From assembly GCF_902809845.1 (NCBI RefSeq), contig NZ_CADDWI010000009.1:310001-374000 (forward strand): DNA of 64,000 bases. The letters are read 5' to 3'. The stretch's first letter is position 1. Each line of letters begins with the position of its first letter. This DNA comes from Chelativorans sp. Marseille-P2723. GTDB taxonomy: Bacteria > Pseudomonadota > Alphaproteobacteria > Rhizobiales > Rhizobiaceae. A program made the position numbers and the translations under genes. This document shows positions 22,580-35,063 of this stretch, in pieces. The notes under the pieces were generated by a model. The model was not told the DNA's origin, made no database searches, and saw nothing but the letters and a program-made list of their open reading frames with translations.

Positions 22580-22683
22580 GTTTCGCAACAAAATGATGTA
22601 ATCCGTCATAGCCCCCTACAACGGAAGTAACATTGGCAGTGTTTACTTGAAATGTGGGGTTGGTGACGAGTTACGGTCGCGTT

Positions 22684-23490
22684 ATGAGTACGTTGCAGCC
22701 AACGATCCCGCACGGCAAACCTGGATTTCTCTCGCAATCGCTGAATTCCAGCCTTTTGCCGGATTTGCCGACTGAGCGATTTGTCGCCGGGCGCGCGATC
22801 CTGTGGGAAGGCGATCCCAGCAGCGATGTCTTTTACCTGGTTGGGGGAACCCTGCGCTACTGCCGTGTTCTCTTGGACGGACGCCGGATGATCTCCAGCT
22901 TTGCTCTTCCGGGTGAGTTCTTCGGCCTCTCCTCGATGGGCCGCTACTTATTCACCATAGAAGCTGTCAGCGATTGCCGCATACAGCGGTTGTCGACCGG
23001 GCGCATGAAGGTGTTGGCCAGTCGGGCTCCGCATGTCCATGGGGCAATTGTCGACGCATTGCGGGTGCAGTACTACCAGATGCATACGCGCCTCTTGTCG
23101 ATGCTGCACAAGAGCGCCGAAGAACGCGTTGCTCATTTTGTGCTCGATATCGGTCAACGCACGACTGGCGATCTGGACAATGGCTCAGTGTTCTGCCTCT
23201 CCATGCCGCGCAGCGATATCGCCGACCATCTTGGGCTCACCGTCGAAACGGTATGCCGCGCTCTGACGCGGCTGAAGCGCGACGGCGTCCTCAAGCTCGA
23301 CAGGCCGAACAGGGTTATCATTAACGACCTTGCTGCATTGTGCGCCCGTGCGGCAGAGGACCCCACCACAGGCGACCTTGGCGCTTCTGGCTCCCCGGCG
23401 CGCCGCGGTGACTGGCGTCGGGAAGCTTTAAGCCGCCCACGCCCGTCGCTCATTCGCAAAACTACAAAACTTAAATCACATCCGAACTGA
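22684..23490 (+). CDS. Crp/Fnr-family transcriptional regulator
   Basis: This 268-residue regulator has an N-terminal cyclic-nucleotide-type beta-barrel (FVAGRAILWEGDPSSDVFYLVGGTLRYCRVLLDGRRMI, PGEFFGL), a dimerisation helix and a C-terminal HTH (MPRSDIADHLGLTVETVCRALTRLKRDGVLKL). The E-x-x-x-R pattern in the recognition helix (ETVCR) is that of FNR/FixK proteins, which read TTGA half-sites. The N-terminal FeS cysteines of true FNR are absent, as in FixK. It lies 169 bp before the Pel-type operon, whose leader contains a matching palindrome. The ATG at 22684 was preferred to a GTG at 22654. Confidence 0.9.
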   Translation: MSTLQPTIPHGKPGFLSQSLNSSLLPDLPTERFVAGRAILWEGDPSSDVFYLVGGTLRYCRVLLDGRRMISSFALPGEFFGLSSMGRYLFTIEAVSDCRIQRLSTGRMKVLASRAPHVHGAIVDALRVQYYQMHTRLLSMLHKSAEERVAHFVLDIGQRTTGDLDNGSVFCLSMPRSDIADHLGLTVETVCRALTRLKRDGVLKLDRPNRVIINDLAALCARAAEDPTTGDLGASGSPARRGDWRREALSRPRPSLIRKTTKLKSHPN

Positions 23491-23659: not shown

Positions 23660-24724
23660 ATGCATAGTCCGACCCATAACGGCGGCAAGCGATATACCAA
23701 AGATAAAGAACAAATCACAGAAGACAGCCTAAATTATCACAACAATTTTATCATACCGGGAATAGATATTTTTGGTCTATTTGCAATGATCATTCTGCTG
23801 GAGAATTCTGGCATTATGAACTTGCACCTTCTGCAGCTCTCCCCGCATCCGTTCTGGATACCCATTCTCCTTGCCGTGGTGCAGTATGGCCTGACGGCAG
23901 GCCTGGTGACAGTGGCCATTGCCAGTAGCCTGCATTGGGTAATGGGAGGCTGGTCCTCTCCTGTGGACCATGCCGATTTCTATGCGTATCTCCAGGCAAA
24001 CCTTCATGAATCGATCCTGTGGCTCCTGAGCGTTGCCGTACTGGGACTAATCCGCCAGAAACAATTCGATGAGCTTGAGGATCTGCGCGAAGAGGCCGCG
24101 CAAAGGGAGAAGCAGGCCAGGACGCTCGCAGATCATTCCCAGGCACTGCGGCAAGAGATTGCCCGGCTCGAACATACGGTCGTGGTATCAGGTGCTGGAA
24201 ATGCAAGCCTCTCGATCGAGTTGCTCAACGATCTGGCCACGGCGCCCGCCCACCAACTGGAGGATGCTTTCAGCCACGCGTTGGGGCGGTTGCTCGGGGC
24301 CAGAAACATTCAGCTCATAATGCTGGAGCATAGCCCGAGCATTCTTACCGGGGAAGATGATCATCTCTCCGCACTGATCCAGACGCCGGACCTGCCTCCT
24401 GCGGCTACACCGCTAATTCTTCATACCCTTAGTTCCTCTGGCCGACCGCTAAACTGCACCCGTAGACAGGATGCATCCAAGCTCGGCGGGACGGCGGCAA
24501 TGGCTGCCTTGGTGCCGGGGTTCGACAAGCGAGCGCTGGGGCTCGTTCTTGTAGGGAAAGTCGAGCCGGCTTGCTTGTCCCCGGCAGGTGAGGCAGCACT
24601 CGCACTTTGCTGCTTCATTCTCGGAATGCGGATCTCCATGAACCGCATGACTGCATCCGATTCCACACTGCCGCGGCGAGCGTCCGGTGGACTCGCAATG
24701 GAACGATATTCTACGAAATCCTGA
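23660..24724 (+). CDS. pelD: PelD-like membrane GAF protein, without GGDEF domain
   Basis: The 354-residue protein has several N-terminal membrane segments (about residues 32-52, 60-95, 112-130), including HPFWIPILLAVVQYGLTAG, which resembles PelD. A charged coiled coil (about 132-176) and a GAF-like domain to about 335 follow. Pseudomonas PelD is roughly 100 residues longer because of a C-terminal degenerate GGDEF domain that binds cyclic di-GMP. That domain and its RxxD site are absent here. It begins the operon with AGGGGG upstream of the ATG and is followed by pelE-like, pelF and pelG, the order seen in known pel loci. Family assignment rests on topology and context. Confidence 0.72.
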   Translation: MHSPTHNGGKRYTKDKEQITEDSLNYHNNFIIPGIDIFGLFAMIILLENSGIMNLHLLQLSPHPFWIPILLAVVQYGLTAGLVTVAIASSLHWVMGGWSSPVDHADFYAYLQANLHESILWLLSVAVLGLIRQKQFDELEDLREEAAQREKQARTLADHSQALRQEIARLEHTVVVSGAGNASLSIELLNDLATAPAHQLEDAFSHALGRLLGARNIQLIMLEHSPSILTGEDDHLSALIQTPDLPPAATPLILHTLSSSGRPLNCTRRQDASKLGGTAAMAALVPGFDKRALGLVLVGKVEPACLSPAGEAALALCCFILGMRISMNRMTASDSTLPRRASGGLAMERYSTKS

Positions 24725-24734
24725 AGGGGCTGCC

Positions 24735-25853
24735 ATGACCATTGTCGCGCAACGCGACGAGATGCCAGGAAGGGGCGTGGATCTTCATCCACTCTATCTG
24801 CTGGCCGTTGCAATCATAGATGCTGCAGTCATCATGGCAGGAGCGGCGGGCATCCTGGCCATTCCAATATTGCTGACCATGCACCTGGCGCTTGCTGGCG
24901 CTGTCTGCTTCGTTCGCGGTTCCGATGGAGACAATGGGGTAGCAGCCATCGGCGCCATCTCCGTGCTGGCAATGGGCCCTCTGGGCGCGCTGGGCATGAT
25001 CATGCTGGCGCACCGCCTTAGGCATGATTGCTCATCTGCCGATAGCCTTGCACCGTCGCATCACCCGTCCGCCGAACCGGCTCATCTCGACCCGCCACAT
25101 GCTATATACAACGAAGTTGCCGAGGGTCGCGCCTATAGTGCGGAAAGATCCCAGGTCTTGCGCTTTGCCGAGGTGATCGCAGGAAACAGCGTGAGAGAAA
25201 AACAGGCGCTGCTTGGCACCATTTCCAAGCAGTACCATCCTGACTATCTGCCCTTCCTACAAGTCGCGTTGAGGAGCCAGGAGGCGCAGGTAAGGGTCTC
25301 CGCCGCCGCTGTTTACGCCAAGCTGCGGGAAGGTTTTTCCCGGCCAATCCAAAAACGGCAGGCAAAAACGACTCCGCAGACGAAGTCGCTGCACGGCAGG
25401 GAGGCGCTGGAACAAGCACAGGCCCTTGCCGATGCGGCTCGATCCGGCCTTCTCAGCATTTCCGATGCCTATCGGGCGCGGAGCATCGCGCTGAGCATCC
25501 TTGTGCAGGAGCGGCCGGCTGCCGTCGATCTTGACGAGACCGAGACGCTACTGTGCGGCTTGCTTCTGGAAATGGAACGTTATGATGAGATCGAGGCGCG
25601 GCTTGCTCCATTGATCCCGAAACTGGGTGGCTCGCTACGCGACATACTCTTCAACGCCCGCCTCCGCGGGGGCCTCTCCGAGAGGATCCCGTTCCTGTTG
25701 AAGTCCGGTCAGAGCGAGGTCGTGTCCTTCGACAGATCTCGTGCCGCAGCGTCCAAACTGCCGCTGCTTGCCCCGTTCGGCGACGACACATGCCGGCAAC
25801 CAGCAGTCCTTTCTCAAGCAGACAGAGGACAGGATGAGCATTCCCGCTTTTGA
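24735..25853 (+). CDS. pelE: PelE-like inner-membrane TPR/HEAT scaffold
   Basis: The 372-residue protein has two N-terminal hydrophobic segments (about residues 19-55 and 68-92) followed by a cytoplasmic helical region. That region includes VRVSAAAVYAKL near 195, paired helices similar to TPR or HEAT repeats. PelE has this layout and bridges PelD, PelF and PelG in the inner-membrane synthase complex. The ATG at 24735 follows GAAGGGG and lies 10 bp after the PelD-like gene. The end overlaps pelF by 20 bp. Sequence similarity to PelE is modest; position between pelD and pelF supports the call. Confidence 0.72.
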   Translation: MTIVAQRDEMPGRGVDLHPLYLLAVAIIDAAVIMAGAAGILAIPILLTMHLALAGAVCFVRGSDGDNGVAAIGAISVLAMGPLGALGMIMLAHRLRHDCSSADSLAPSHHPSAEPAHLDPPHAIYNEVAEGRAYSAERSQVLRFAEVIAGNSVREKQALLGTISKQYHPDYLPFLQVALRSQEAQVRVSAAAVYAKLREGFSRPIQKRQAKTTPQTKSLHGREALEQAQALADAARSGLLSISDAYRARSIALSILVQERPAAVDLDETETLLCGLLLEMERYDEIEARLAPLIPKLGGSLRDILFNARLRGGLSERIPFLLKSGQSEVVSFDRSRAAASKLPLLAPFGDDTCRQPAVLSQADRGQDEHSRF

Positions 25854-27366
25854 CCTTGCCCGGGGGAAGGAAACGGATGTGTGCCTCATCGTGGAGGGGT
25901 GTTACCCGTACGTGCTTGGCGGCGTTGCGGGCTGGCTCGACTGGCTGATGCGTAGCCAGCCGGAACTGACCTTTTCTGTCGTCTCTATTGTTTCGGGGAA
26001 GGGCCCGCGCGAAAGCAAATACGTTTTCCCCGACAACCTGCTGCGCTTCTGCGAACTCGATCTGCAAGGCCCGCCCCCAACATTCCGGGCAAGACCCTTC
26101 AAGCCGGGGGAAGCGGACGTTCAACGTGTCGTACAGATTCTGGACCGTTTCGCGCGAACCGGACAGCTTGAAGCCCTTGACGACCTGCTACATTGGCTCC
26201 GCAACCCGCAGATGCCGCCTACTTTCCACGAGCTGACGCAATCGGAGTTCTCGTGGAGGGTAGTCACCGGACTCTATGCGCGGCTGATGCCGCACGCCTC
26301 CTTCCTCGATTTCTTCTGGGCTTGGCACACACTCATCCGCGGGCTTTTGGCAACCGCCATGTTTCCCCTGCCGCGCGCCCGCATCTATCACACCATTTCT
26401 ACCGGCTATGCCGGCCTGTTCGCTGCACGCGCATTTCTGGAAACCGGACACCGAACCATCCTCACCGAGCACGGCATCTACACGAATGAAAGGCGCCTTG
26501 AAATTCTCATGGCCGACTGGATCGTGGATACGGTGGACAAGGGCCTGAGACTGAATGACCCGCGCATGGACCTGCGCGATCTTTGGATCAGGGTCTTCGA
26601 GAGTTATGCGCGCGCCTGCTATGAAGCATGCGAAACCGTCACCACCCTTTACTCGGACAACCAGACACTACAGGTCAATCTCGGAGCGCCCCGGCACAAG
26701 CTGGCGGTCATCCCGAACGGCATCGATCTGGCGCATTTCGGCAGTGTAGCCCCGCCCAGGCAGGACGCGCCACCAACCATGGCAATGGTCGGGCGTGTCG
26801 TGCCGATCAAGGACGTCAAGACCTTCATAGCCGCCGCCGCCGCGGTACGTCACGCCGTCCCCGGCTTGCGCGCTCCCATACTGGGGCCGCTGGACGAAGA
26901 TCCCGCCTATTTTGCCGAATGCCGGCAGATGGTGGCGGATCTCGGGCTGGAATCAATCGTGCGGTTCGAAGGGCGCGTGGATGTGAAGCAATGGCTGTCT
27001 TCGATCCATGTTGTGGTGCTGACCAGCCTTAGCGAAGCGCAACCGCTGACGCTTCTGGAAGCCGGAGCGGCCGGCATTCCCTGCGTCACGACCAATGTCG
27101 GCTCCTGCAGGGAGATTCTTCTGGGACGCGAGGATGAAGAGCCTGCCTATGGGGCCGGAGGTATCGTCACTGACGTGGTTGCCCCTGAACAGATCGCGGA
27201 GGGTGTAATTGCGCTTTTGACCAACGCGCAATTGCGTCAGGAGATGGGTGAGCGCCTGCAACGCCGCGTGCGGCGATTTTATTCTTCCGAGCGTGCGAGC
27301 AATGCTTACCGCCGCCTCTACCGCGAGCCTGCCGCGTCCGATGGAGCTTCTTCATGGCAGGAATAG
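25834..27366 (+). CDS. pelF: PelF glycosyltransferase (GT4)
   Basis: This 510-residue cytoplasmic GT-B enzyme shows the PelF hallmark at the N-terminus, VCLIVEGCYPYVLGGVAGW. It continues with YHTISTGYAGLFAARA, LTEHGIYTNERR, AVIPNGIDL, MVGRVVPIKDVKTFI and the retaining-GT4 EX7E-type segment EAQPLTLLEAG near 430. PelF polymerises nucleotide-activated amino sugars (UDP-GalNAc in Pseudomonas) into Pel chains. The ATG at 25834 was chosen over an upstream frame start by its GAGG site and family alignment. It overlaps pelG by 13 bp. Confidence 0.93.
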   Translation: MSIPAFDLARGKETDVCLIVEGCYPYVLGGVAGWLDWLMRSQPELTFSVVSIVSGKGPRESKYVFPDNLLRFCELDLQGPPPTFRARPFKPGEADVQRVVQILDRFARTGQLEALDDLLHWLRNPQMPPTFHELTQSEFSWRVVTGLYARLMPHASFLDFFWAWHTLIRGLLATAMFPLPRARIYHTISTGYAGLFAARAFLETGHRTILTEHGIYTNERRLEILMADWIVDTVDKGLRLNDPRMDLRDLWIRVFESYARACYEACETVTTLYSDNQTLQVNLGAPRHKLAVIPNGIDLAHFGSVAPPRQDAPPTMAMVGRVVPIKDVKTFIAAAAAVRHAVPGLRAPILGPLDEDPAYFAECRQMVADLGLESIVRFEGRVDVKQWLSSIHVVVLTSLSEAQPLTLLEAGAAGIPCVTTNVGSCREILLGREDEEPAYGAGGIVTDVVAPEQIAEGVIALLTNAQLRQEMGERLQRRVRRFYSSERASNAYRRLYREPAASDGASSWQE

Positions 27367-28850
27367 GGATAACCTCTCGCGCGCTGTTCCGACGCAGCGG
27401 CGTGATTGGGCCAGCGGCAACGCTCAGCCACGGCGCGGTGATCGCCGCCGGACCATGGATCTTTACCGTTCTTTCCATAGCCGTAATCGACAGGGCGACC
27501 ATAGGAATTCTGTTGGACGAGCACAGCTATGCCTTTCGTGGCCTCGTCATCTACGCCTTTGCGTTGTCGCTGTTTGCCACCATGCCGGTGGTCAATGTAG
27601 CGGTCCGGCAAGTCGCAGACGACATTTTCCTGGGCAATTTCCATGAAATCCGCCCGCGCTACGTCGCAGCCCTCATCCTTAGTTCACTGGCCTCAGCGGC
27701 AGTGGCCGGAGTGACGCTAACCCTGCTTCGTGTTTCAGGCATCGACCTTGTGGTCGCGATCGCCGCAACAACGGTGGTGGGGCTTATCTGGCCCAGCCTC
27801 GCCTTCTGTAGTGCAACGCGTGATTATTCCGGCATTACCTCCGGTTTCGTCATAGGGCTCGTTGTTTCGATAATGGCGACGGTGGCGGTTGCCCATGCCG
27901 ATTGGGGATCGGCAGCAATGATGGCAGCTTTCACGACGGGCCTCGGTCTGGTTTTCTTTGCACTGGCCGGCCGGATCCTAAGCACCTTTCCTTCCCCCGT
28001 AAGGCAGATAGGTCCCCAACTCGCCAATCTGCTGAAGGGCTTCGTCAGCTACCGGGTGCTGGCGCTGGGGTCTGGGATAGCCATCGCAGCCTTGTGGATG
28101 GACAAGTGGATCATGTGGGTCAGCCCTCAGGGGGTGCGGCTGGAAAATGGGCTTATCAGCGCACCGGTTTATGATGGCGCAATGTTCATTGCCTACCTGG
28201 TGATCATTCCCGCACTCGGCATGTTCGTCACCGGGATAGAAACGACATTCTTCAAGGCATATCGCGGCTACTTTCATGCAATCCATGCGCGCGCTCCGCT
28301 GTCGCGGATCCATGTCGCCCGCACCACGCTTGACCGCCAGGCAACACGTCTCCTTTGGCGCATGATGGCAATACAGGCGATACTCTGCACCGTCGCGGCA
28401 ATGGCAGCTCCCTCTTTGGTGAATGCCGTGGGATTGCAGTATCAGCAGATCGGGATACTACGCCTTGGCCTCGCAGCAGCCCTCTTTCAGTTCATATTTC
28501 TCGCAGCCACCTCGCTCCTCCTCTTCTTCGAGCGCCACGGACGATTCCTGGTATTGCAGACCATCTTTCTGGTTTGTCAGGTGGGCTTTACGCTTCTTTC
28601 AATCTGGCTCGGGCCCGAATATCTCGGCTTGGGTCACTTGGTGGCCTGCGCCGCCGCCGCTTTCGCTGCCATGGCAGTACTCGACCGCACCTTAAAAAAA
28701 CTCGTTTACCTCACCTTCGACACCGCCTTGCGGCAAAGCCTGGCATTCGGATCTCGCAAGGCGCGCCGACAGGAAAAGCCGGTCCAGATCCATGATTTTC
28801 CCATGTCGCTCTATCCGGACGGACCGCCTAAGCCGCTGCTGGCGCCATGA
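27354..28850 (+). CDS. pelG: PelG polysaccharide transporter
   Basis: The 498-residue protein has about twelve hydrophobic segments and the MOP-superfamily PelG pattern: MAGIGITSRALFRR, ISSGPW-like AAGPWIFTVLS and the central PVYDGAMFIAYLVIIPALGMF near residue 273. PelG moves the growing polymer across the inner membrane with PelD, PelE and PelF. Length and order match known PelG. The C-terminal tail (from about 460) is charged and cytoplasmic. Confidence 0.93.
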   Translation: MAGIGITSRALFRRSGVIGPAATLSHGAVIAAGPWIFTVLSIAVIDRATIGILLDEHSYAFRGLVIYAFALSLFATMPVVNVAVRQVADDIFLGNFHEIRPRYVAALILSSLASAAVAGVTLTLLRVSGIDLVVAIAATTVVGLIWPSLAFCSATRDYSGITSGFVIGLVVSIMATVAVAHADWGSAAMMAAFTTGLGLVFFALAGRILSTFPSPVRQIGPQLANLLKGFVSYRVLALGSGIAIAALWMDKWIMWVSPQGVRLENGLISAPVYDGAMFIAYLVIIPALGMFVTGIETTFFKAYRGYFHAIHARAPLSRIHVARTTLDRQATRLLWRMMAIQAILCTVAAMAAPSLVNAVGLQYQQIGILRLGLAAALFQFIFLAATSLLLFFERHGRFLVLQTIFLVCQVGFTLLSIWLGPEYLGLGHLVACAAAAFAAMAVLDRTLKKLVYLTFDTALRQSLAFGSRKARRQEKPVQIHDFPMSLYPDGPPKPLLAP

Positions 28851-28875
28851 AAACGCATCACAAAGGACAAGACTC

Positions 28876-30297
28876 ATGCTCAAGCTCCATGCCTCAGCTT
28901 CCAGGCCCCCCACAGGTTTCCTGCATTTCCTGGCCGTCGCCGCGGCGTTGATTGCGTTGATGGGGGGAACCTGGTTCCCCATCACCACCGCCGCCGCCGA
29001 GGAGGCAGCGCAGGACACGGCTCCGGTACAAGAAACCTCCACGGAGGAAGCGACCGCGTCAGCGACAGCCGAGACACCTCCAACACAGGTATCACCGGCG
29101 CAATTTCACATCGGGGACCGGCTTCAGATCAGCTTCTTTGAGCATCTGGAGCTTCCACCGCCGGGCGGGTCCGACAGCTCCGCTATGACTGCCGCCATGC
29201 GCACCTTTTACCAGCGGCTGGACCTGACAGGCGAATATAACGTGGAGATGGACGGCACAATCGCAATTCCGTTGCTCGGGCGGTTCTCCGTCGGTGGCAA
29301 GACCCTTGAGGAACTGCGCGATGAGATCTCAACAACCTTCCAGCAGCAGATCGGGCGCAGCGGCGAGGTTTATGTGAATATTCTGGCGCGACAGCCTGTT
29401 TTTGTTCTCGGCGTGGTGCGTAATCCCGGCTCCTATCCCTTCTCGCCCGGCATGATCGCATTGCAGGCGATCGCGCTTGCAGGAGGATTTGAACGCCTGC
29501 CCGAAGGCGCTCCGCAGCACATGGAGTTAAGGCGCGAACGTGAGCGCCTCGCCCAGGCGATGCAACGTCTGAAGCGCCTGACAGCGCAGCGGGCCCGTTT
29601 GACGGAGGAACGCGACGGGCAGCGTGTGGCCGCCTCCCATCCCATATTGGCACAGGCTGCGCAGGATGCCGACGAAATGCTGGAGGGCGAGCGTAGTCTG
29701 GGTGAAGTGGAGGCCGCCGTACGCCAGGGTGAGGCCGAACTTCACGGCGCCGCGCTAGAAAGTGCCCGCGGGGAGTTGGAGACGCTTCGCGAGAGCGCTA
29801 CCCTTTTCAACCAACAGATTGAAGCTCGCACTGAGCGGCTGCGAGTATTGCAGCAGATGCAAGGCCGCGGCGTTGCCAATCTGGAAGCGGTCTGGGGCGC
29901 CCAGAAAGATCTGACGGATCTTGAGCTCCAGCGCGAGCAACTACTCTCGGCGATTCATGTTGCCGAACAGAAGGTGGTGCAGGCTGAGCTGACCCAATCG
30001 AAGGTCGATCTGGAGCATCGCGCCCGCATTACCCGCGACCTTGTTGCCGTGGAGGACGAAATTGCCGGCCTCGAAACCACAATTACCACCGCACGAGACA
30101 TGGTGCGGACCCTTGAGGCGGCCCTGCGCGGGCTGGGAGCCGACGACAAGGCAAGGATTGAGATTCTACGCCGCACCGATGAAGGGGTACTCAACTTCGT
30201 GGCAAGCGAAAGCGAGGAGTTGGCACCAGGTGATGTGATTAAGGTGGTCGCCGAGCGGTTGGACATGATGTCGACAGCACAAACAGAACGACGCTGA
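28876..30297 (+). CDS. ExoF-like polysaccharide export protein (PES/SLBB with coiled coil)
   Basis: The 473-residue protein has an N-terminal signal sequence or anchor (about residues 17-40) and a low-complexity Ala/Glu/Thr linker. A polysaccharide-export domain follows (FHIGDRLQISFFEHLE, GEYNVEMDGTIAIPLLGRF), then an SLBB segment (VFVLGVVRNPGSYPFSPGMIALQAIALAGGF), a long coiled coil (about 215-420) and a final GDVIKVV. This is the layout of rhizobial ExoF rather than lipoprotein Wza; no lipobox was seen. Pel operons of Pseudomonas have no such gene, so it probably replaces or assists the missing outer-membrane exit. The ATG at 28876 has AAGGA upstream and lies 25 bp after pelG. Confidence 0.87.
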   Translation: MLKLHASASRPPTGFLHFLAVAAALIALMGGTWFPITTAAAEEAAQDTAPVQETSTEEATASATAETPPTQVSPAQFHIGDRLQISFFEHLELPPPGGSDSSAMTAAMRTFYQRLDLTGEYNVEMDGTIAIPLLGRFSVGGKTLEELRDEISTTFQQQIGRSGEVYVNILARQPVFVLGVVRNPGSYPFSPGMIALQAIALAGGFERLPEGAPQHMELRRERERLAQAMQRLKRLTAQRARLTEERDGQRVAASHPILAQAAQDADEMLEGERSLGEVEAAVRQGEAELHGAALESARGELETLRESATLFNQQIEARTERLRVLQQMQGRGVANLEAVWGAQKDLTDLELQREQLLSAIHVAEQKVVQAELTQSKVDLEHRARITRDLVAVEDEIAGLETTITTARDMVRTLEAALRGLGADDKARIEILRRTDEGVLNFVASESEELAPGDVIKVVAERLDMMSTAQTERR

Positions 30298-30326
30298 GCA
30301 GGTCAGCTTGTTCAGGGGCTTAATTA

Positions 30327-31286
30327 ATGTCGAGTTCAGGTATTTTTTCTCTCACGCGGCGGAATGTCATTGCTGCTTTCCTGGCAGGTCTGATGTTCGC
30401 GATGCAGAGAGCCGGAGCCACAACACGGGGTTTGAGCACGGAGAGGGTCCAATCGCGGCGCGCGCTTGCGCGCGTCAGATGTTGGGGTTGTCAGTATCAA
30501 AACGTGAAGCTTAGCGAGATCTCAGCCTCGAACCTCGATCTCATCATCATCGACGCAAGCCTCGATGACGGTCGCCGGCGGTTTGTCACGCCGGACGAAA
30601 GGAGACTCCTCCAGCGCAAGCCTAATGGTCAGCGGCGCATTGTCCTTGGTTATCTATGTGTCGGGGAAGCCGACGTGAAACGCTGGTACTGGCCGCCGCA
30701 GTGGCGGGAGCAGGTGCCCGACTGGGTGGGACCGGAGAACCCAAAATGGCCAGGCTCACGTTACGTCCGGTACTGGGATGACCGCTGGCAATCCATGGTC
30801 TTCCGTGCCCCTGACTCCATCCTTGACCGAATTCTGGACATCGGTTTCGATGGCGTCCTGATCGACCGTGCCGACGCCTATCTTGATTGGGAGAAAGAAA
30901 GGCCCACGGCCCAGCAAGACATGATTGACCTTATCGCCGAGCTCGCCGCCAAGGCACGCGGGCGCGATCCAGGATTCATCCTGTTGCCGCAGAACGCCGA
31001 GTTGCTACTCACGCGGCAGCGCTATCTCGACCTCATCGATGCGCACAACAAAGAAAGCCTGCTCACCGGACTGAAGGGCGAGGGCATAGAAAACGACAGG
31101 AGGGACGTGGTTTGGAGCCTGGGCTATTTGCGCAAGGCGCAGGCCGCGGGAATAAAGATGTTGGCCACCGAATACCTGGCCGACATGGAGGCAATCGCCT
31201 CCGCCCGCAAGCACCTTACCTCGCTTGGCTTCCTTCCCTTTTTCGGCCACCGTCAGCTTGACCGACTGCCACTTGAGGAATGCTGA
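30327..31286 (+). CDS. GH114/TM1410-family glycoside hydrolase (PelA hydrolase-like)
   Basis: The 319-residue exported protein has a twin-arginine-like N-terminus (TRRNVIAAFLAGLMFAM). It then follows the GH114 pattern: LIIIDASLDDG near residue 72, VLGYLCVGEADVKRWYW near 110, WPGSRYVRYWDDRWQ, and GFDGVLIDRADAYLDW near 175. In Pseudomonas this endo-galactosaminidase domain is the N-terminal part of PelA; here it is a separate gene that overlaps the deacetylase gene by 7 bp. The conserved Asp and Glu residues appear intact, so it is probably active. It would trim or release polymer in the periplasm. Confidence 0.83.
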   Translation: MSSSGIFSLTRRNVIAAFLAGLMFAMQRAGATTRGLSTERVQSRRALARVRCWGCQYQNVKLSEISASNLDLIIIDASLDDGRRRFVTPDERRLLQRKPNGQRRIVLGYLCVGEADVKRWYWPPQWREQVPDWVGPENPKWPGSRYVRYWDDRWQSMVFRAPDSILDRILDIGFDGVLIDRADAYLDWEKERPTAQQDMIDLIAELAAKARGRDPGFILLPQNAELLLTRQRYLDLIDAHNKESLLTGLKGEGIENDRRDVVWSLGYLRKAQAAGIKMLATEYLADMEAIASARKHLTSLGFLPFFGHRQLDRLPLEEC

Positions 31287-33577
31287 CGATGTTTGCGTGT
31301 CTGTCTTTCCTCAGATACCTGGCGGGCCGGTTATGCTTCTTCGGCGGCATGGTGCTCATCCTGACCCAACATGCGGCGGCGATTCCGGTCCAGCGTGAAA
31401 TTCTTGCAATTTATGACAGCGTTCACGAGGAGCTATCCTCAGCCACGATGGTCCATTACATGGCCGAGATGCCACTTAACCACCTGGGGTATATCGTTAA
31501 GTATCACGACATCCGCACGAAGCCGCTGCCTCCTGTCGAGACCATGTCACGTTATCGCGCGGTCATCACCTGGTTCACCTACAATCTGGAGAATCCAGCC
31601 TACTACCTGGACTGGGCAGCGAAGGTCTCAGAAAGCGGCACCCGCTTCATCATTCTAGGAAGCGTAGGGGCTGATCCGAGCGATAACAATCTTCCGCTCC
31701 TGAACCGAGTTCTCGCACGGATCGGAGTACGATATACGACGGACTTCGTGTCCATTACCATGGGCTCAAAGATCCTTTTCCAGGACGAGGATCTTATCGG
31801 GTTCGAGCATCCGGTCGATCCTGCGATGCCTGAATATCCCATCATCGAGACAATCTCACTCGAAGCCTATGTGGCTCTTGAGGTTATGGCACCCCAACGT
31901 AGCCTCAACAGGCCCACTGCGCTTGTGACGATCGGGCCGGGCGGCGCCTACGTGGCTGCCGAATTCGAGATCTTTTACGACGAACAACTCAACCGCAGCC
32001 GGTGGATCATCAACCCATTCGCGTTTTTCCATCGCGCGCTGGGCGGGGAGGTTTTCCCAATCCCCGATACCACCACCGTATCGGGACGGCGGCTCTACTT
32101 CAGCCACGTCGACGGCGACGGCTGGATCAATCTCGTGGAAATGGAACGATACCGGAACCCGCCAACCACATCGGCGGAGGTCATGCTGAAGGAGCTGATC
32201 GAACCTTTTCCAGATCTTCCTGTAACCGTGGGGCTTGTGGCGGGGGACCTCGACCCGCAACTTGGTGGAGGCAAGATTGCCGAGGATCTGGCTCGGCGCA
32301 TCTTTGCCCTCCCTCATGTAGAGGTCGGGCTCCACACCAGCACCCACCCGTTTGACTGGGGCTTTTATGAAAATTACAGCCGTTCGGCGGAGCTTGCCCT
32401 GCTGGAAGAAGGCGTTGCCACAAACCAGCCAACCGGCATGTTCAGCCGGCTGACCGCTAGCATCGGCCTGTCCCAGGAGCGTTCAGCAAAGGAAGCCATG
32501 CGGCAGCTCTACGTGTCCGGGGGCAAGGAACTGCCGCGCGCCTATATGCGCGATCCATTCCGGCTGGATCAGGAAGTCGACCTTGCCATTCAGCAGACGG
32601 AGGCGCTGGCGCCGCCTGGAAAAGCTGTAGAGCTTTATCAGTGGACTGGCGACACTCGGGCGTTCGAAGCTGTCGTGAAGGCAACGCGCCGGGCAGGCAT
32701 AAGGAACCTCAATGGCGGCGACAGTCGCTTTGACGACGAGTATCCTTCAGTCGGCTATGTCCCGCCATTGTCCCGCGAGGCGGGAAGCGAACGGCAGATA
32801 TATGCTGTGAACAGTAATGAGAACACCTACACCAATGACTGGACGGAGCATTTCCACGGCTTCCTAAGCCTCAGCGAAACGATTAGGCGAACGGAAAATC
32901 CACGGCGGCTCAAAGGCGTCAACGTCTATTACCATACGTTTTCGGCCGAAAAGGAAGCGTCACTGAATGCTGTTCGCACCCATTTGCGATGGGCGCGCAA
33001 GCAGAAACTAGCTCCGATCGAAGCCTCCCGCTATGCAACAATAGCCGACGGCTTTTTCAGCACTAAGATTGAAAGGCGCGGGCCATGGAGCTGGCGGGTT
33101 TCCGGGCGTGACGGTTTGCAGACGGTCCGCTTCGACGATGCCGAAGAACTGGACGTCGACCTTGCTGCGAGCGTCGGGGTCATTGGCCGCACCCGCCATC
33201 AAGGGTCCCTCTACATCGCCCTTGACGAAACCGTGCCCGCCGCCACCATCAAGCTGAAGGCCAGGGACAAGGCGCCCGGACCCGAACATGCTCCGGTCAC
33301 CGCACTTGACAACAGCCGCTGGCGCATATGGGACCTTGAGCGCGATGCTTGCGGCATAAACTACCAGGCAAGCGGCTATGGACCTGGAGAATTCACCTGG
33401 GTCGGATTCTTGCCGGGAACCACCTACGAGCTGGAGGCGCGGCACGACGAAAAGATGGCCTGGAGCAGCTTCGCAACGGCAGATGCCGACGGTCGGCTGG
33501 AATTCGAGATCAAGGCCGATGCCATCAGTGGTATCGAAATCCGGCTGTCCTGTATCCCGACCGGAAGTGGAGCGTGA
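31280..33577 (+). CDS. pelA: PelA-type polysaccharide deacetylase
   Basis: This 765-residue protein has an N-terminal signal segment and a Rossmann-like region (ITWFTYNLENPAYYLDW, FIILGSVGAD). A deacetylase domain follows with LYFSHVDGDGWIN near residue 272 and LHTSTHPFDW near 353, which give the Asp and His-x-x-x-His metal and catalytic residues seen in PelA. GVNVYYHTFSAEKEASL lies near 547. A C-terminal beta-rich domain completes it. PelA partly deacetylates the N-acetylgalactosamine polymer, giving a cationic chain. Here the GH114 part is carried by the preceding gene. The start overlaps that gene (ATG within its last codons), and the end overlaps the TPR gene by GTGA. Confidence 0.85.
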   Translation: MLTMFACLSFLRYLAGRLCFFGGMVLILTQHAAAIPVQREILAIYDSVHEELSSATMVHYMAEMPLNHLGYIVKYHDIRTKPLPPVETMSRYRAVITWFTYNLENPAYYLDWAAKVSESGTRFIILGSVGADPSDNNLPLLNRVLARIGVRYTTDFVSITMGSKILFQDEDLIGFEHPVDPAMPEYPIIETISLEAYVALEVMAPQRSLNRPTALVTIGPGGAYVAAEFEIFYDEQLNRSRWIINPFAFFHRALGGEVFPIPDTTTVSGRRLYFSHVDGDGWINLVEMERYRNPPTTSAEVMLKELIEPFPDLPVTVGLVAGDLDPQLGGGKIAEDLARRIFALPHVEVGLHTSTHPFDWGFYENYSRSAELALLEEGVATNQPTGMFSRLTASIGLSQERSAKEAMRQLYVSGGKELPRAYMRDPFRLDQEVDLAIQQTEALAPPGKAVELYQWTGDTRAFEAVVKATRRAGIRNLNGGDSRFDDEYPSVGYVPPLSREAGSERQIYAVNSNENTYTNDWTEHFHGFLSLSETIRRTENPRRLKGVNVYYHTFSAEKEASLNAVRTHLRWARKQKLAPIEASRYATIADGFFSTKIERRGPWSWRVSGRDGLQTVRFDDAEELDVDLAASVGVIGRTRHQGSLYIALDETVPAATIKLKARDKAPGPEHAPVTALDNSRWRIWDLERDACGINYQASGYGPGEFTWVGFLPGTTYELEARHDEKMAWSSFATADADGRLEFEIKADAISGIEIRLSCIPTGSGA

Positions 33578-34971
33578 CCGTGCGGCCACCGTTCATTGCA
33601 TTTGCCTGTTCGCTGGTTGCAGTTGCCGTCGGATTTGCCACTGTCCCGCGTCCGCTGGAACAGGTCACGATGCTGATACGTGACCGACGATACGAGCAAG
33701 CTTTGCACCTAGCCAACGCGAAGGTGGAAGCCGGTGAGGCGAGTCCGGAAGTGCTGATGCAGGCATTCCTGCTCAACGAGCGATATGGAGACTTCTATTT
33801 TGCGAAGAGCGCCCTGAGATCTTATCTTGCGCTACGCCCGGACGACGTTGAAGCCTGGCGCAAAGCGGCATGGGTCTATGCAAATGCCCATCGCCGGGAG
33901 CCTCTCCTGAATGCGCTGGAGAATGTCCTACGGCTGACCGGCGATCCGCAAACAGCCGACAGGCTGGCCCGCTTCTACAGGATGCATGCGCGGTTTGACG
34001 ACGAACTTCGTGTCCTTCAGACAATCCCTTCCGATAAGATCGGCGAAGCGCGCGGGATGCGTTTGGCCTCACTGTTAGCAGCAGAGGAGAGGCTGAAGGA
34101 GGCGAGCGCCCTGCTTGCCGACCTCGATCGGATTTTGCCCATAGATGCCAGGCAGCCGCGGATGTTGCTGTTTGAGATTTTGGTCGAAGACGGCAGGTTT
34201 GTCGAAGCGGTGGAACATGCGAGCAACTGGCTTGAAACCTGGCATGGTGCAGAAAGTCGCGTGGAGTTCGTACGGTCGCTGCTAAGGGCCGGGGCCGAGG
34301 AAGCCGCCATCCAAATTGCATCCATGGCAGACGGCTCGGTGGAGCCCTTCATACTGGACGAGCTCATTTCGCTGCTATCGTCAGAGAACCGGCTTTACCT
34401 GCTGGGCGATCTATTGTCGGGATGGATCGCACAAGCAGTAGCCATATCGCCTGAGGCGCTCGACTTCCAACTTCGCGAGATTGTCGATGTCGCTGCAAAG
34501 CGAGGAATGGGAATGGAACTCGCCCTGCACCTTATGCGGACATTGCAACGTAGTGAGAGGCCAGATCTGCAGGCGGGGCTGATCAATGCGATCCTCGAGC
34601 GGTTCGGATACTCAGCGATAGTGCCGGTTCGTGCGGCGATAACCCCCCAGGTGCTCGCCGCACGTCCGGTAATGGCGGCTCGGCTGTTCCTTGCCGAAGG
34701 AAACCCCATGGCGGCACGTTATTTTCTGCTGGGAACCGAGCTGGCAGATATTCCCGAACGGTTGCGCCCATCCTGGCTTGATCTGGCAAGGGAAATTCTC
34801 AAGCCCTCCGAGCTACTTGGCGAACTGGTGGCGCAAGCGCGATCCGGAAAGTTGCCAGCGGATATGCTGCGGCCCGCACTCGACCTTGCAACGAGCCTTG
34901 GAGGCGAAGCACAGCTCCGCCAGATTTGGTCGCTCGCAGCTTACGCCGAATGGCAATCGAGCGACATCTAG
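33574..34971 (+). CDS. TPR-repeat periplasmic protein, PelB-like scaffold without barrel
   Basis: The 465-residue protein has one N-terminal hydrophobic segment (PFIAFACSLVAVAVGFA) followed by helical repeats of TPR type (YEQALHLANAKVEAGEASPEVLMQAFLL, FAKSALRSYLALRPDDVEAWRKAAWVYA, and others). Pseudomonas PelB is about 1190 residues, with TPRs that guide PelA and a C-terminal outer-membrane beta-barrel. Here only TPR-like sequence is present. The GTG start overlaps the pelA stop as GTGA; a second GTG lies at 33580. It is the last gene of the operon. Its link to PelB is by repeat type and position, not by clear sequence identity. Confidence 0.7.
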   Translation: MTVRPPFIAFACSLVAVAVGFATVPRPLEQVTMLIRDRRYEQALHLANAKVEAGEASPEVLMQAFLLNERYGDFYFAKSALRSYLALRPDDVEAWRKAAWVYANAHRREPLLNALENVLRLTGDPQTADRLARFYRMHARFDDELRVLQTIPSDKIGEARGMRLASLLAAEERLKEASALLADLDRILPIDARQPRMLLFEILVEDGRFVEAVEHASNWLETWHGAESRVEFVRSLLRAGAEEAAIQIASMADGSVEPFILDELISLLSSENRLYLLGDLLSGWIAQAVAISPEALDFQLREIVDVAAKRGMGMELALHLMRTLQRSERPDLQAGLINAILERFGYSAIVPVRAAITPQVLAARPVMAARLFLAEGNPMAARYFLLGTELADIPERLRPSWLDLAREILKPSELLGELVAQARSGKLPADMLRPALDLATSLGGEAQLRQIWSLAAYAEWQSSDI

Positions 34972-35063
34972 GTCACTCCTAAATTTCATGGATGCTGGAA
35001 TGACCAGGTTCCGGCTTTTTCAGATCTGGACGGAGAACCGACACCCGCTTTTCTATGAACCTT

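What the first reader, a model, noticed from the sequence alone, without database searches (positions are those of the whole stretch)
23660..34971. Variant Pel operon with an ExoF-type exporter in place of PelB barrel and PelC
Eight genes run in one direction with gaps of 29 bp or less or overlaps: PelD-like, PelE-like, PelF, PelG, ExoF-like export protein, GH114 hydrolase, PelA-type deacetylase, TPR protein. PelF and PelG are clear. Known Gram-negative Pel systems export through the PelB outer-membrane barrel with PelC; neither is in the operon. Instead a PES/SLBB protein of the kind used by Wzx/Wzy and rhizobial succinoglycan systems is embedded between pelG and the hydrolase. This suggests a hybrid machine that makes a Pel-like polymer but exports it by another outer-membrane route. 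I do not know of a description of this arrangement.
Basis: partly seen in the sequence, partly recalled or inferred. Interest (0 to 1): 0.78.

Follow-up and report, generated by a model that had tools for sequence, protein, structure and literature searches.

The report
Pel biofilm operon with swapped exporter
A bacterial gene cluster that looks built to make a Pel-type slime polymer has lost the usual outer-membrane pore genes and carries instead an exporter-type protein known from other polysaccharide systems.

Summary
Eight same-strand genes (23660-34971) encode PelD, PelE, PelF, PelG, an ExoF-type OPX protein, a GH114 hydrolase, a PelA-type deacetylase and a TPR protein. The TPR protein is the N-terminal half of the PelB scaffold (profile match E 3.7e-40); the outer half, barrel and PelC are missing. 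Profile searches found no PelB barrel in the own genome or 18 other OPX-Pel genomes, and no PelC beyond weak Microvirga matches. The arrangement recurs in 25 of 95 distinct pel loci (Methylobacterium, Aureimonas, Paracoccus, Sulfitobacter and others), none with barrel or PelC in the stretch held. In Microvirga, on a separate branch, the OPX gene sits where relatives keep the barrel gene, and the TPR protein is shortened. The OPX model joins Wza-like domains to a HlyD/LipC-like hairpin, without an evident membrane-spanning part. PelD lacks the region that holds the c-di-GMP receptor domain elsewhere. Best reading: a Pel machine whose outer-membrane half was replaced by an OPX/adaptor chimera. 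Export through it is inferred; the pore is unidentified; 8 of 12 pel loci surveyed in the window's order have no OPX of this kind nearby. New variant of a known kind.

The parts
22654..23490 (+). CRP/FNR (FixK-like) regulator, 169 bp upstream of pelD; possible regulator of the operon, not shown to belong
   Evidence: Pfam HTH_Crp_2 and cNMP_binding; best NCBIfam match FixK 120.6 bits, below its cut-off of 300
23660..24724 (+). PelD-like membrane protein without the C-terminal region that holds the GGDEF (c-di-GMP receptor) domain in long PelD
   Evidence: BLAST to Azospirillum PelD 1.8e-14; profile match covers columns 18-313 of 468 of the comparison PelD profile; PelD_GGDEF in 0 of 26 of this set, but also in only 2 of 18 of the comparison set
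24735..25853 (+). PelE-like protein
   Evidence: BLAST to Azospirillum PelE 8.2e-11; start chosen
25834..27366 (+). PelF glycosyltransferase (GT4)
   Evidence: NF038011 412.9 bits; PF11997 235.4 bits; the only DUF3492 match in the genome
27354..28850 (+). PelG inner-membrane transporter
   Evidence: PF16933 318.6 bits
28876..30297 (+). ExoF-type OPX protein: hydrophobic N-terminus (signal-peptide-like, by eye), Poly_export, SLBB, long helical hairpin, C-terminal beta unit
   Evidence: Pfam; AlphaFold model pLDDT 81.6, pTM 0.50; Foldseek to Wza, class-3 OPX WzaB, LipC and HlyD
30327..31286 (+). GH114 hydrolase (stands for the PelA hydrolase domain)
   Evidence: PF03537; TM1410 structures E 9.4e-32
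31280..33577 (+). PelA-type de-N-acetylase without the hydrolase domain
   Evidence: PDB PelA 9cgy, two stretches between residues 251 and 837, E 3.1e-61, with HxDGDG and HTxxHPF motifs aligned
33574..34971 (+). TPR protein = N-terminal half of the PelB-type scaffold with N-terminal hydrophobic helix; no barrel
   Evidence: hhalign to PelB TPR profile columns 7-460 of 968, E 3.7e-40; all-helical model pLDDT 89.9
34994..35015 (+). terminator-like hairpin after the last gene
   Evidence: the number of such sites in the region (12) is about what shuffles give (mean 11.3)

Best explanation
This is an operon for a Pel-type galactosamine polymer (inferred) whose outer-membrane half has been exchanged. 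PelF would polymerise UDP-GalNAc and PelG with PelD/PelE would carry the chain across the inner membrane. The periplasmic deacetylase (PelA without its hydrolase) and the separate GH114 enzyme would modify and trim it. The TPR protein is the surviving inner-membrane-anchored half of the PelB scaffold, which in P. aeruginosa holds the PelA-binding region. The rest of PelB (outer TPRs and barrel) and the PelC ring are replaced by an OPX protein, built from Wza-like ring domains (Poly_export, SLBB) plus a hairpin like that of HlyD/LipC adaptors. An OPX ring with its long hairpins would bridge the periplasm and hand the polymer to the outer membrane. The OPX protein has no evident membrane-spanning part, so either an unlinked channel forms the pore (see the first rival, a special case of this reading) or the ring does so in an unknown way. 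Shown here: gene content, homology, recurrence, absence of PelC/PelB barrel within the reach of the profiles, one replacement in a separate lineage. Inferred: polymer identity, OPX function, complex architecture, pore.
For: Gene identities. PelC profile, which finds solved PelC: 0 in the own genome, no convincing match in 18 other OPX-Pel genomes, found in 4 of 4 PelC-bearing controls, all four of which contributed to the model. Alphaproteobacterial PelB-barrel profile: 0 of 24 genomes (own, 18 OPX, 5 with neither), 7 of 7 barrel-type controls, 3 of them not in the model. Classical PelB-barrel profile: 0 of the same 24. Of 87 loci, 22 carry the OPX and none of these has a barrel or PelC in the stretch held, while 45 of the other 65 have a barrel. 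Three more OPX loci, also without barrel or PelC, in a separate survey. TPR protein = N-terminal half of PelB scaffold. Microvirga L039: GH114-TPR(579 aa)-OPX-PelDEFG, against GH114-TPR(about 960)-barrel protein-PelDEFG in its relatives L040, L051 and L066, its TPR aligning to residues 9-508 of the 960 of L040. OPX and PelF distances covary, Spearman 0.69, reached in 0 of 2000 permutations. OPX fold.
Against: Of 12 pel loci found in 397 genomes of the order, 8 have neither this OPX nor a barrel within about 9 kb of pelG, so the OPX is not universally linked; in the first set 6 uncut loci also have neither. Independent contrasts on the PelF tree are only 3 (2 opposite, 1 no difference; not significant). 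The OPX has no evident outer-membrane segment, and no barrel gene was recognised at the locus. No polysaccharide co-polymerase, the usual OPX partner, is at the locus; the genome's two Wzz-domain matches lie on other contigs. The classical-barrel profile missed one of two controls outside the model, the PelC controls were all model members, and an unrelated barrel would not be seen. Several OPX loci are cut near contig ends. Two barrel loci (L056, L070) have weak OPX-like matches (27 and 40 bits) on separate genes, below my threshold of 60 bits. The distance correlation partly reflects shared ancestry of the hosts.
Confidence: 0.72

Rival explanations
1. Pel-type synthesis as above, but the real outer-membrane channel is an unlinked beta-barrel unrelated to PelB, and the OPX is a periplasmic ring beneath it, as in the composite EpsX/EpsY translocon of Myxococcus. 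(A special case of the main reading, differing in what forms the pore.)
For: The OPX lacks an evident membrane-spanning segment, like class-3 OPX proteins, of which the Myxococcus ones pair with barrels (PMC9603273, PMC9601211; passages read). Foldseek matches the class-3 OPX WzaB. Eight related pel loci have neither OPX nor barrel nearby, so distant partners are plausible.
Against: No barrel gene was recognised beside the OPX; the one signal-peptide protein looked at next to an OPX (L102) reads like a TonB-dependent receptor (by eye). No search for other barrel families was run.
Confidence: 0.4
2. The operon lost outer-membrane export; the polymer stays in the periplasm or cell wall, and the OPX serves another polysaccharide.
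For: Gram-positive Pel systems work without PelB/PelC (PMC7112168, passages read). The genome has two other OPX genes. Some related loci keep the pel genes with neither OPX nor barrel nearby.
Against: The OPX lies between pelG and the hydrolase gene with gaps of 25 and 29 bp and is kept with pel genes in 25 loci in several arrangements. Eight neighbouring genes tested hold no other polysaccharide gene.
Confidence: 0.1
3. PelF/PelG here make a different polymer, not galactosamine-based.
For: Sequence divergence: PelG is at most 35% identical to the plasmid-borne relatives found. A related locus carries a sugar epimerase-family gene beside pelG (L104).
Against: Match to the PelF equivalog model, a PelA-type deacetylase with its motifs and a GH114 enzyme all fit an alpha-1,4-galactosamine polymer.
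Confidence: 0.15

Closest known systems
Gram-negative Pel systems (pelABCDEFG, P. aeruginosa)
   Same: PelD, PelE, PelF, PelG, PelA deacetylase homology, N-terminal part of the PelB TPR scaffold, a hydrolase
   Different: No PelB barrel, outer TPRs or PelC; OPX present; PelA split into two genes; PelD without the GGDEF region
Azospirillum-type pel operon (GH114-deacetylase-TPR-TPR/barrel-PelC-PelDEFG)
   Same: Split PelA; PelF about 46% identical; same PelD/E/F/G order
   Different: Keeps a separate barrel protein and PelC; long PelD
ExoF-type OPX proteins of alphaproteobacteria (succinoglycan and similar pathways)
   Same: Poly_export, SLBB and an adaptor-like helical insert (PMC2850547 reports this chimera for alphaproteobacterial OPX proteins, shown on a homologue of ExoF; passages read)
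   Different: Those serve Wzx/Wzy- or ABC-type pathways with a co-polymerase (recalled); this one sits in a synthase-type Pel operon without one
Composite OPX/beta-barrel translocon of Myxococcus (EpsX/EpsY)
   Same: OPX without an outer-membrane segment
   Different: There a barrel partner is known and the pathway is Wzx/Wzy; here none was recognised
Gram-positive pelDE-A(DA)-FG
   Same: Stand-alone PelA deacetylase; streptococcal PelD also lacks GGDEF (PMC7112168)
   Different: No outer membrane; OPX and PelB scaffold are not part of the described cluster
Cyanobacterial XcsAB-TolC cellulose model
   Same: A synthase-made polymer proposed to leave through a HlyD-like adaptor (PMC12430437, passages read)
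   Different: Adaptor is not an OPX; TolC proposed there, and the review calls the model unvalidated

Membership tests
Pel biosynthetic systems | PelF glycosyltransferase | tested here: met
   NF038011 412.9 bits, cut-off 100
Pel biosynthetic systems | PelG transporter | tested here: met
   PF16933 318.6 bits, cut-off 29
Pel biosynthetic systems | PelA deacetylase and hydrolase domains | tested here: met
   By homology, as two genes: deacetylase to PelA E 3.1e-61; separate GH114
Pel biosynthetic systems | PelD with c-di-GMP-binding GGDEF domain | tested here: not met
   Homologous over TM and GAF region only; PelD_GGDEF 0 of 26, though only 2 of 18 in the comparison set
Pel biosynthetic systems | PelE | tested here: met
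   Weak homology, 25% over 316 aa to Azospirillum PelE, E 8.2e-11, same position
Gram-negative Pel with PelB/PelC export | PelB beta-barrel | tested here: not met
   0 in own genome with two barrel profiles; the second missed one of two independent controls
Gram-negative Pel with PelB/PelC export | PelB TPR scaffold | tested here: met
   N-terminal half only
Gram-negative Pel with PelB/PelC export | PelC lipoprotein | tested here: not met
   0 in own genome
Pel biosynthetic systems | Product is partly deacetylated alpha-1,4-GalNAc polymer | not testable with these tools
   Needs chemistry
OPX proteins | Poly_export and SLBB domains | tested here: met
   51.2 and 30 bits, over cut-offs; Wza fold
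OPX proteins | C-terminal outer-membrane helix (Wza_C; classes 1 and 2B) | tested here: inconclusive
   The Pfam scan listed no Wza C-terminal family (that Pfam holds such a model is recalled); the model shows only a short end helix, residues 460-472, mostly at low confidence. Most like class 3
ExoF-type (adaptor-helix) OPX | HlyD-like helical insert | tested here: met
   LipC 5nen_B TM 0.81 (target-normalised), rmsd 2.1; HlyD; weak HlyD match in NCBIfam. ExoF itself was not aligned here
OPX/PCP export pathways | Co-polymerase (Wzz-type) gene with the OPX | tested here: not met
   Own genome's two Wzz matches are on other contigs

The most novel reading that the evidence does not exclude
A synthase-type polymer is exported through a periplasm-spanning OPX/adaptor chimera that joins the Pel inner-membrane complex to the outer membrane, with no PelB barrel, no PelC and no co-polymerase. 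The hairpin part may dock a TolC-like or other shared channel. That would be an outer-membrane route different from PelBC, from Wza-Wzc and from the composite OPX/barrel. The tip of the hairpin is not more conserved than its arms (1.70 against 1.85 and 1.94 bits), which does not favour a conserved dock; the genome does hold one TolC-family open frame.
Probability: 0.2. Interest if true: 0.82.

Novelty: new variant of a known kind. Interest (0 to 1): 0.63.

Why it matters
Polysaccharide export is described as separate routes: synthase-dependent systems use a TPR-barrel protein, Wzx/Wzy and ABC systems use OPX proteins (PMC9601211). Here a synthase-type system recurs with an OPX where the TPR-barrel half should be, in Hyphomicrobiales, Rhodobacterales and others. 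PelC has been called a hallmark of Gram-negative Pel (PMC12141448) and was used as a search bait (PMC7112168), so such loci would be missed that way. The PelD in these loci mostly lacks the region of the c-di-GMP receptor domain, which suggests different control of the machine.

Tried and rejected
PelB or PelC hidden elsewhere in the genome: rejected within the reach of three profiles. OPX belonging to a neighbouring polysaccharide cluster: eight neighbouring genes tested are regulators, ABC transporter parts and an acyl-CoA dehydrogenase. Barrel fused to the TPR protein: the model is all helical, and the 50 best Foldseek rows shown (of 263 at E <= 0.001) are other helical-repeat proteins, none a PelB entry. 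TonB-receptor-like neighbour of the OPX in L102: by eye not an export barrel. TolC-docking tip: no extra conservation. Shortened PelD as a mark of the OPX class: not exclusive, since 13 of 46 PelD hits in barrel loci are also short, two of them pieces in one locus, and Microvirga's OPX locus keeps a long one. Horizontal-gene signature by G+C: none clear (operon 59.1%, window 56.9%), although 0 of 60 relatives, 15 of the same genus, have a PelG match. RNA families: none at the gathering score. Phylogenetic independence test: too few contrasts.

Failures: one search stopped on a script bug; the TPR seed was in the wrong frame and was corrected; two searches were frame errors in my coordinates, redone (the second without one of the L102 proteins and without the other).
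Full report
What is there. PelF and PelG are certain by curated models. PelD and PelE have no Pfam or NCBIfam match but align to the genes in the same positions of Azospirillum pel operons. The fifth gene encodes a Poly_export/SLBB protein with a signal-peptide-like start (by eye). The sixth is a GH114 enzyme. The seventh is the deacetylase part of PelA, with HxDGDG and HTxxHPF motifs aligned to a solved PelA. The eighth is a TPR protein with an N-terminal hydrophobic helix. The genome holds a single PelF (DUF3492) match, and none of 60 relatives, 15 in the same genus, has a PelG match.

The TPR protein. A profile of 21 such proteins (16 from OPX loci, 5 from Hyphomicrobium-type loci) aligns over columns 1-448 of its 480 to columns 7-460 of a 968-column profile of 13 PelB-type TPR scaffolds (E 3.7e-40). 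The latter includes two classical PelB proteins, one of which matches solved PelB (E 9.8e-25). The predicted structure is helical throughout (pLDDT 89.9). In P. aeruginosa the PelB scaffold may be anchored in the inner membrane, and PelA interacts with its residues 332-436 (PMC12141448, passages read). So the operon keeps the inner-membrane half of the PelB scaffold and has lost the outer half, the barrel and PelC.

Absence elsewhere. A PelC profile, which recognises solved PelC, has no match in the own genome and none in 17 of 18 other OPX-Pel genomes. Microvirga gives three weak matches (E 7e-5 to 7.5e-4) in open frames of 600 aa or more, which I take as spurious. The four controls with PelC in their locus were all found, but all four had given rows to the model. 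The alphaproteobacterial barrel profile finds 0 of 24 (own, 18 OPX, 5 with neither) and 7 of 7 barrel-type controls, 3 of which were not in the model. It does not recognise the classical barrels of L005 and L008, so a second profile was made from those two: 0 of the same 24. Of its four controls it found the two model members and Cupriavidus, and missed Pseudoalteromonas, so its reach is limited. One OPX genome (L017) is not held, and the plasmid records L006 and L007 were not searched. The completeness of the genomes other than the own (99.8%) was not told.

Recurrence. One scan of the named genome collection with a PelF alignment kept the best 80 of 565 relatives. With the window and six plasmid loci this makes 87, annotated by profiles built here. 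Labels: OPX 22, barrel 45, neither 6, cut by contig ends 14. OPX means a match over 60 bits; two barrel loci have weaker matches on separate genes (L070 40 bits, L056 27 bits). No OPX locus has a barrel or PelC in the stretch held, though some stretches are short (for example L007, L026, L036). Some barrel calls are weak (L087 33, L073 39, the Sphingomonas loci 67-73 bits). OPX loci come from Methylobacterium, Aureimonas, Fulvimarina, Paracoccus, Sulfitobacter, Loktanella, a Marivita MAG, Rubellimicrobium, Microvirga, a Roseiarcus MAG, two Rhodobacteraceae MAGs and a Thiohalocapsa MAG. In Methylobacterium (4 of 4), Aureimonas and Fulvimarina the order is deacetylase-TPR-PelD-PelE-PelF-PelG-OPX-GH114; the window's order is a permutation of it. 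In 9 of 11 Rhodobacterales OPX loci the OPX precedes pelD and the deacetylase and TPR genes are divergent; L007 is cut there, and in L029 the OPX lies with the divergent genes.

Tree. On the PelF tree (quick method, SH-aLRT only) the window groups with Aureimonas and Fulvimarina (97), inside a set of 32 rows (20 OPX, 7 cut, 5 neither; 96) without a barrel locus. The OPX label needs 6 changes on the tree. Microvirga L039 and the Roseiarcus MAG L079 lie inside barrel groups; L079 has a long branch and its place is unsure. In Microvirga the OPX gene lies where L040, L051 and L066 have the barrel gene (L034 is arranged differently), and its TPR protein matches residues 9-508 of the 960 of L040. 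This is the clearest sign of replacement. Formal independent contrasts are only three and not significant.

A second sample. A PelG search of 397 genomes drawn from the window's order gave 11 genomes over the cut-off, own included, with 12 loci; two more genomes had weak matches. The eleven other loci were fetched. OPX genes of this type lie in L097, L102 and L103, which with the window makes 4 of 12; the other 8 have neither this OPX nor a barrel within about 9 kb, and none of the 11 has a barrel or PelC match. L101 has a weak OPX match (32 bits) at the end of its stretch, not counted. Genomes of the 'neither' kind carry other OPX genes elsewhere, the best at 211 bits; the pel-linked ones in that search score about 450, and Microvirga's 330, on a profile built from pel-linked ones. 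Whether they serve Pel is open.

The OPX protein. The model (pLDDT 81.6, pTM 0.50) has the Poly_export domain (about 82-171), an SLBB unit, a hairpin of two helices of 69 and 84 residues, and a C-terminal beta unit. Foldseek matches Wza, the class-3 OPX WzaB, and for the hairpin part LipC (TM 0.81, rmsd 2.1) and HlyD. The chimera of OPX and adaptor helices is itself known for alphaproteobacteria (PMC2850547, passages read). New here is its place in a Pel operon. OPX and PelF distances covary over 22 loci (Spearman 0.69), in keeping with joint inheritance, though host ancestry adds to it.

PelD. PelD of the OPX and 'neither' sets aligns to the comparison PelD only over the membrane and GAF regions (columns 18-313 of 468). 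PelD_GGDEF is found in 0 of 26 of them, but also in only 2 of 18 of the comparison set, so the argument rests on length and alignment. Microvirga keeps a long PelD, and some barrel loci have short ones. Streptococcal PelD also lacks the domain (PMC7112168, passages read).

Literature. Passages of the 2020 operon survey mention pelB fission and gain or loss of loci, not OPX in Pel (PMC7112194; its supplements were not seen). Two 2022 OPX papers place OPX in Wzx/Wzy and ABC pathways and barrels in synthase pathways (PMC9603273, PMC9601211, passages read). Searches for Pel genes with OPX, roseobacter, alphaproteobacterial, Methylobacterium or Rhizobiales terms listed no description; I judged by listings, and one search listed 15 of 76.

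Verdict. A real, recurrent variant of Pel machinery with an exchanged outer-membrane half. The working of the OPX as Pel exporter is the most likely reading and is untested; the pore is unknown.

Noticed in passing
L009-L012, L080, L095, L099: Giant ORFs (at least 1097-1960 aa, several cut by the end of the stretch) lie beside the pel genes; the five looked at (L009, L010, L080, L095, L099) begin with an 'LDG.L.(D/E)W' type sequence. L009 has polysaccharide-deacetylase and cadherin-like matches over cut-off, L095 a weak deacetylase match, the first 1001 aa of L080 none. They may be secreted matrix proteins.
   Followed up: partly
L014, L019, L094: Three or four GH114 genes close together beside the pel operon of Hyphomicrobium-type loci.
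   Followed up: no
L079, L104, L080: A 328-aa ORF shortly after pelG that reads as a sugar-nucleotide epimerase/dehydratase, tested in L104 only; possibly a different sugar in these polymers.
   Followed up: partly
window 22654-23490: CRP/FixK-like regulator directly upstream on the same strand; weaker CRP-family matches (25-37% identity) in six of the other fetched loci, so a link is unproven.
   Followed up: partly
L003, L004 and other Azospirillum loci: PelB is split into a long TPR protein and a separate TPR-plus-barrel protein, with PelC kept in all but L046.
   Followed up: partly
L097 18177-19301: A second, divergent OPX gene (50 bits) upstream of the deacetylase in a locus that also has the pel-type OPX.
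   Followed up: no
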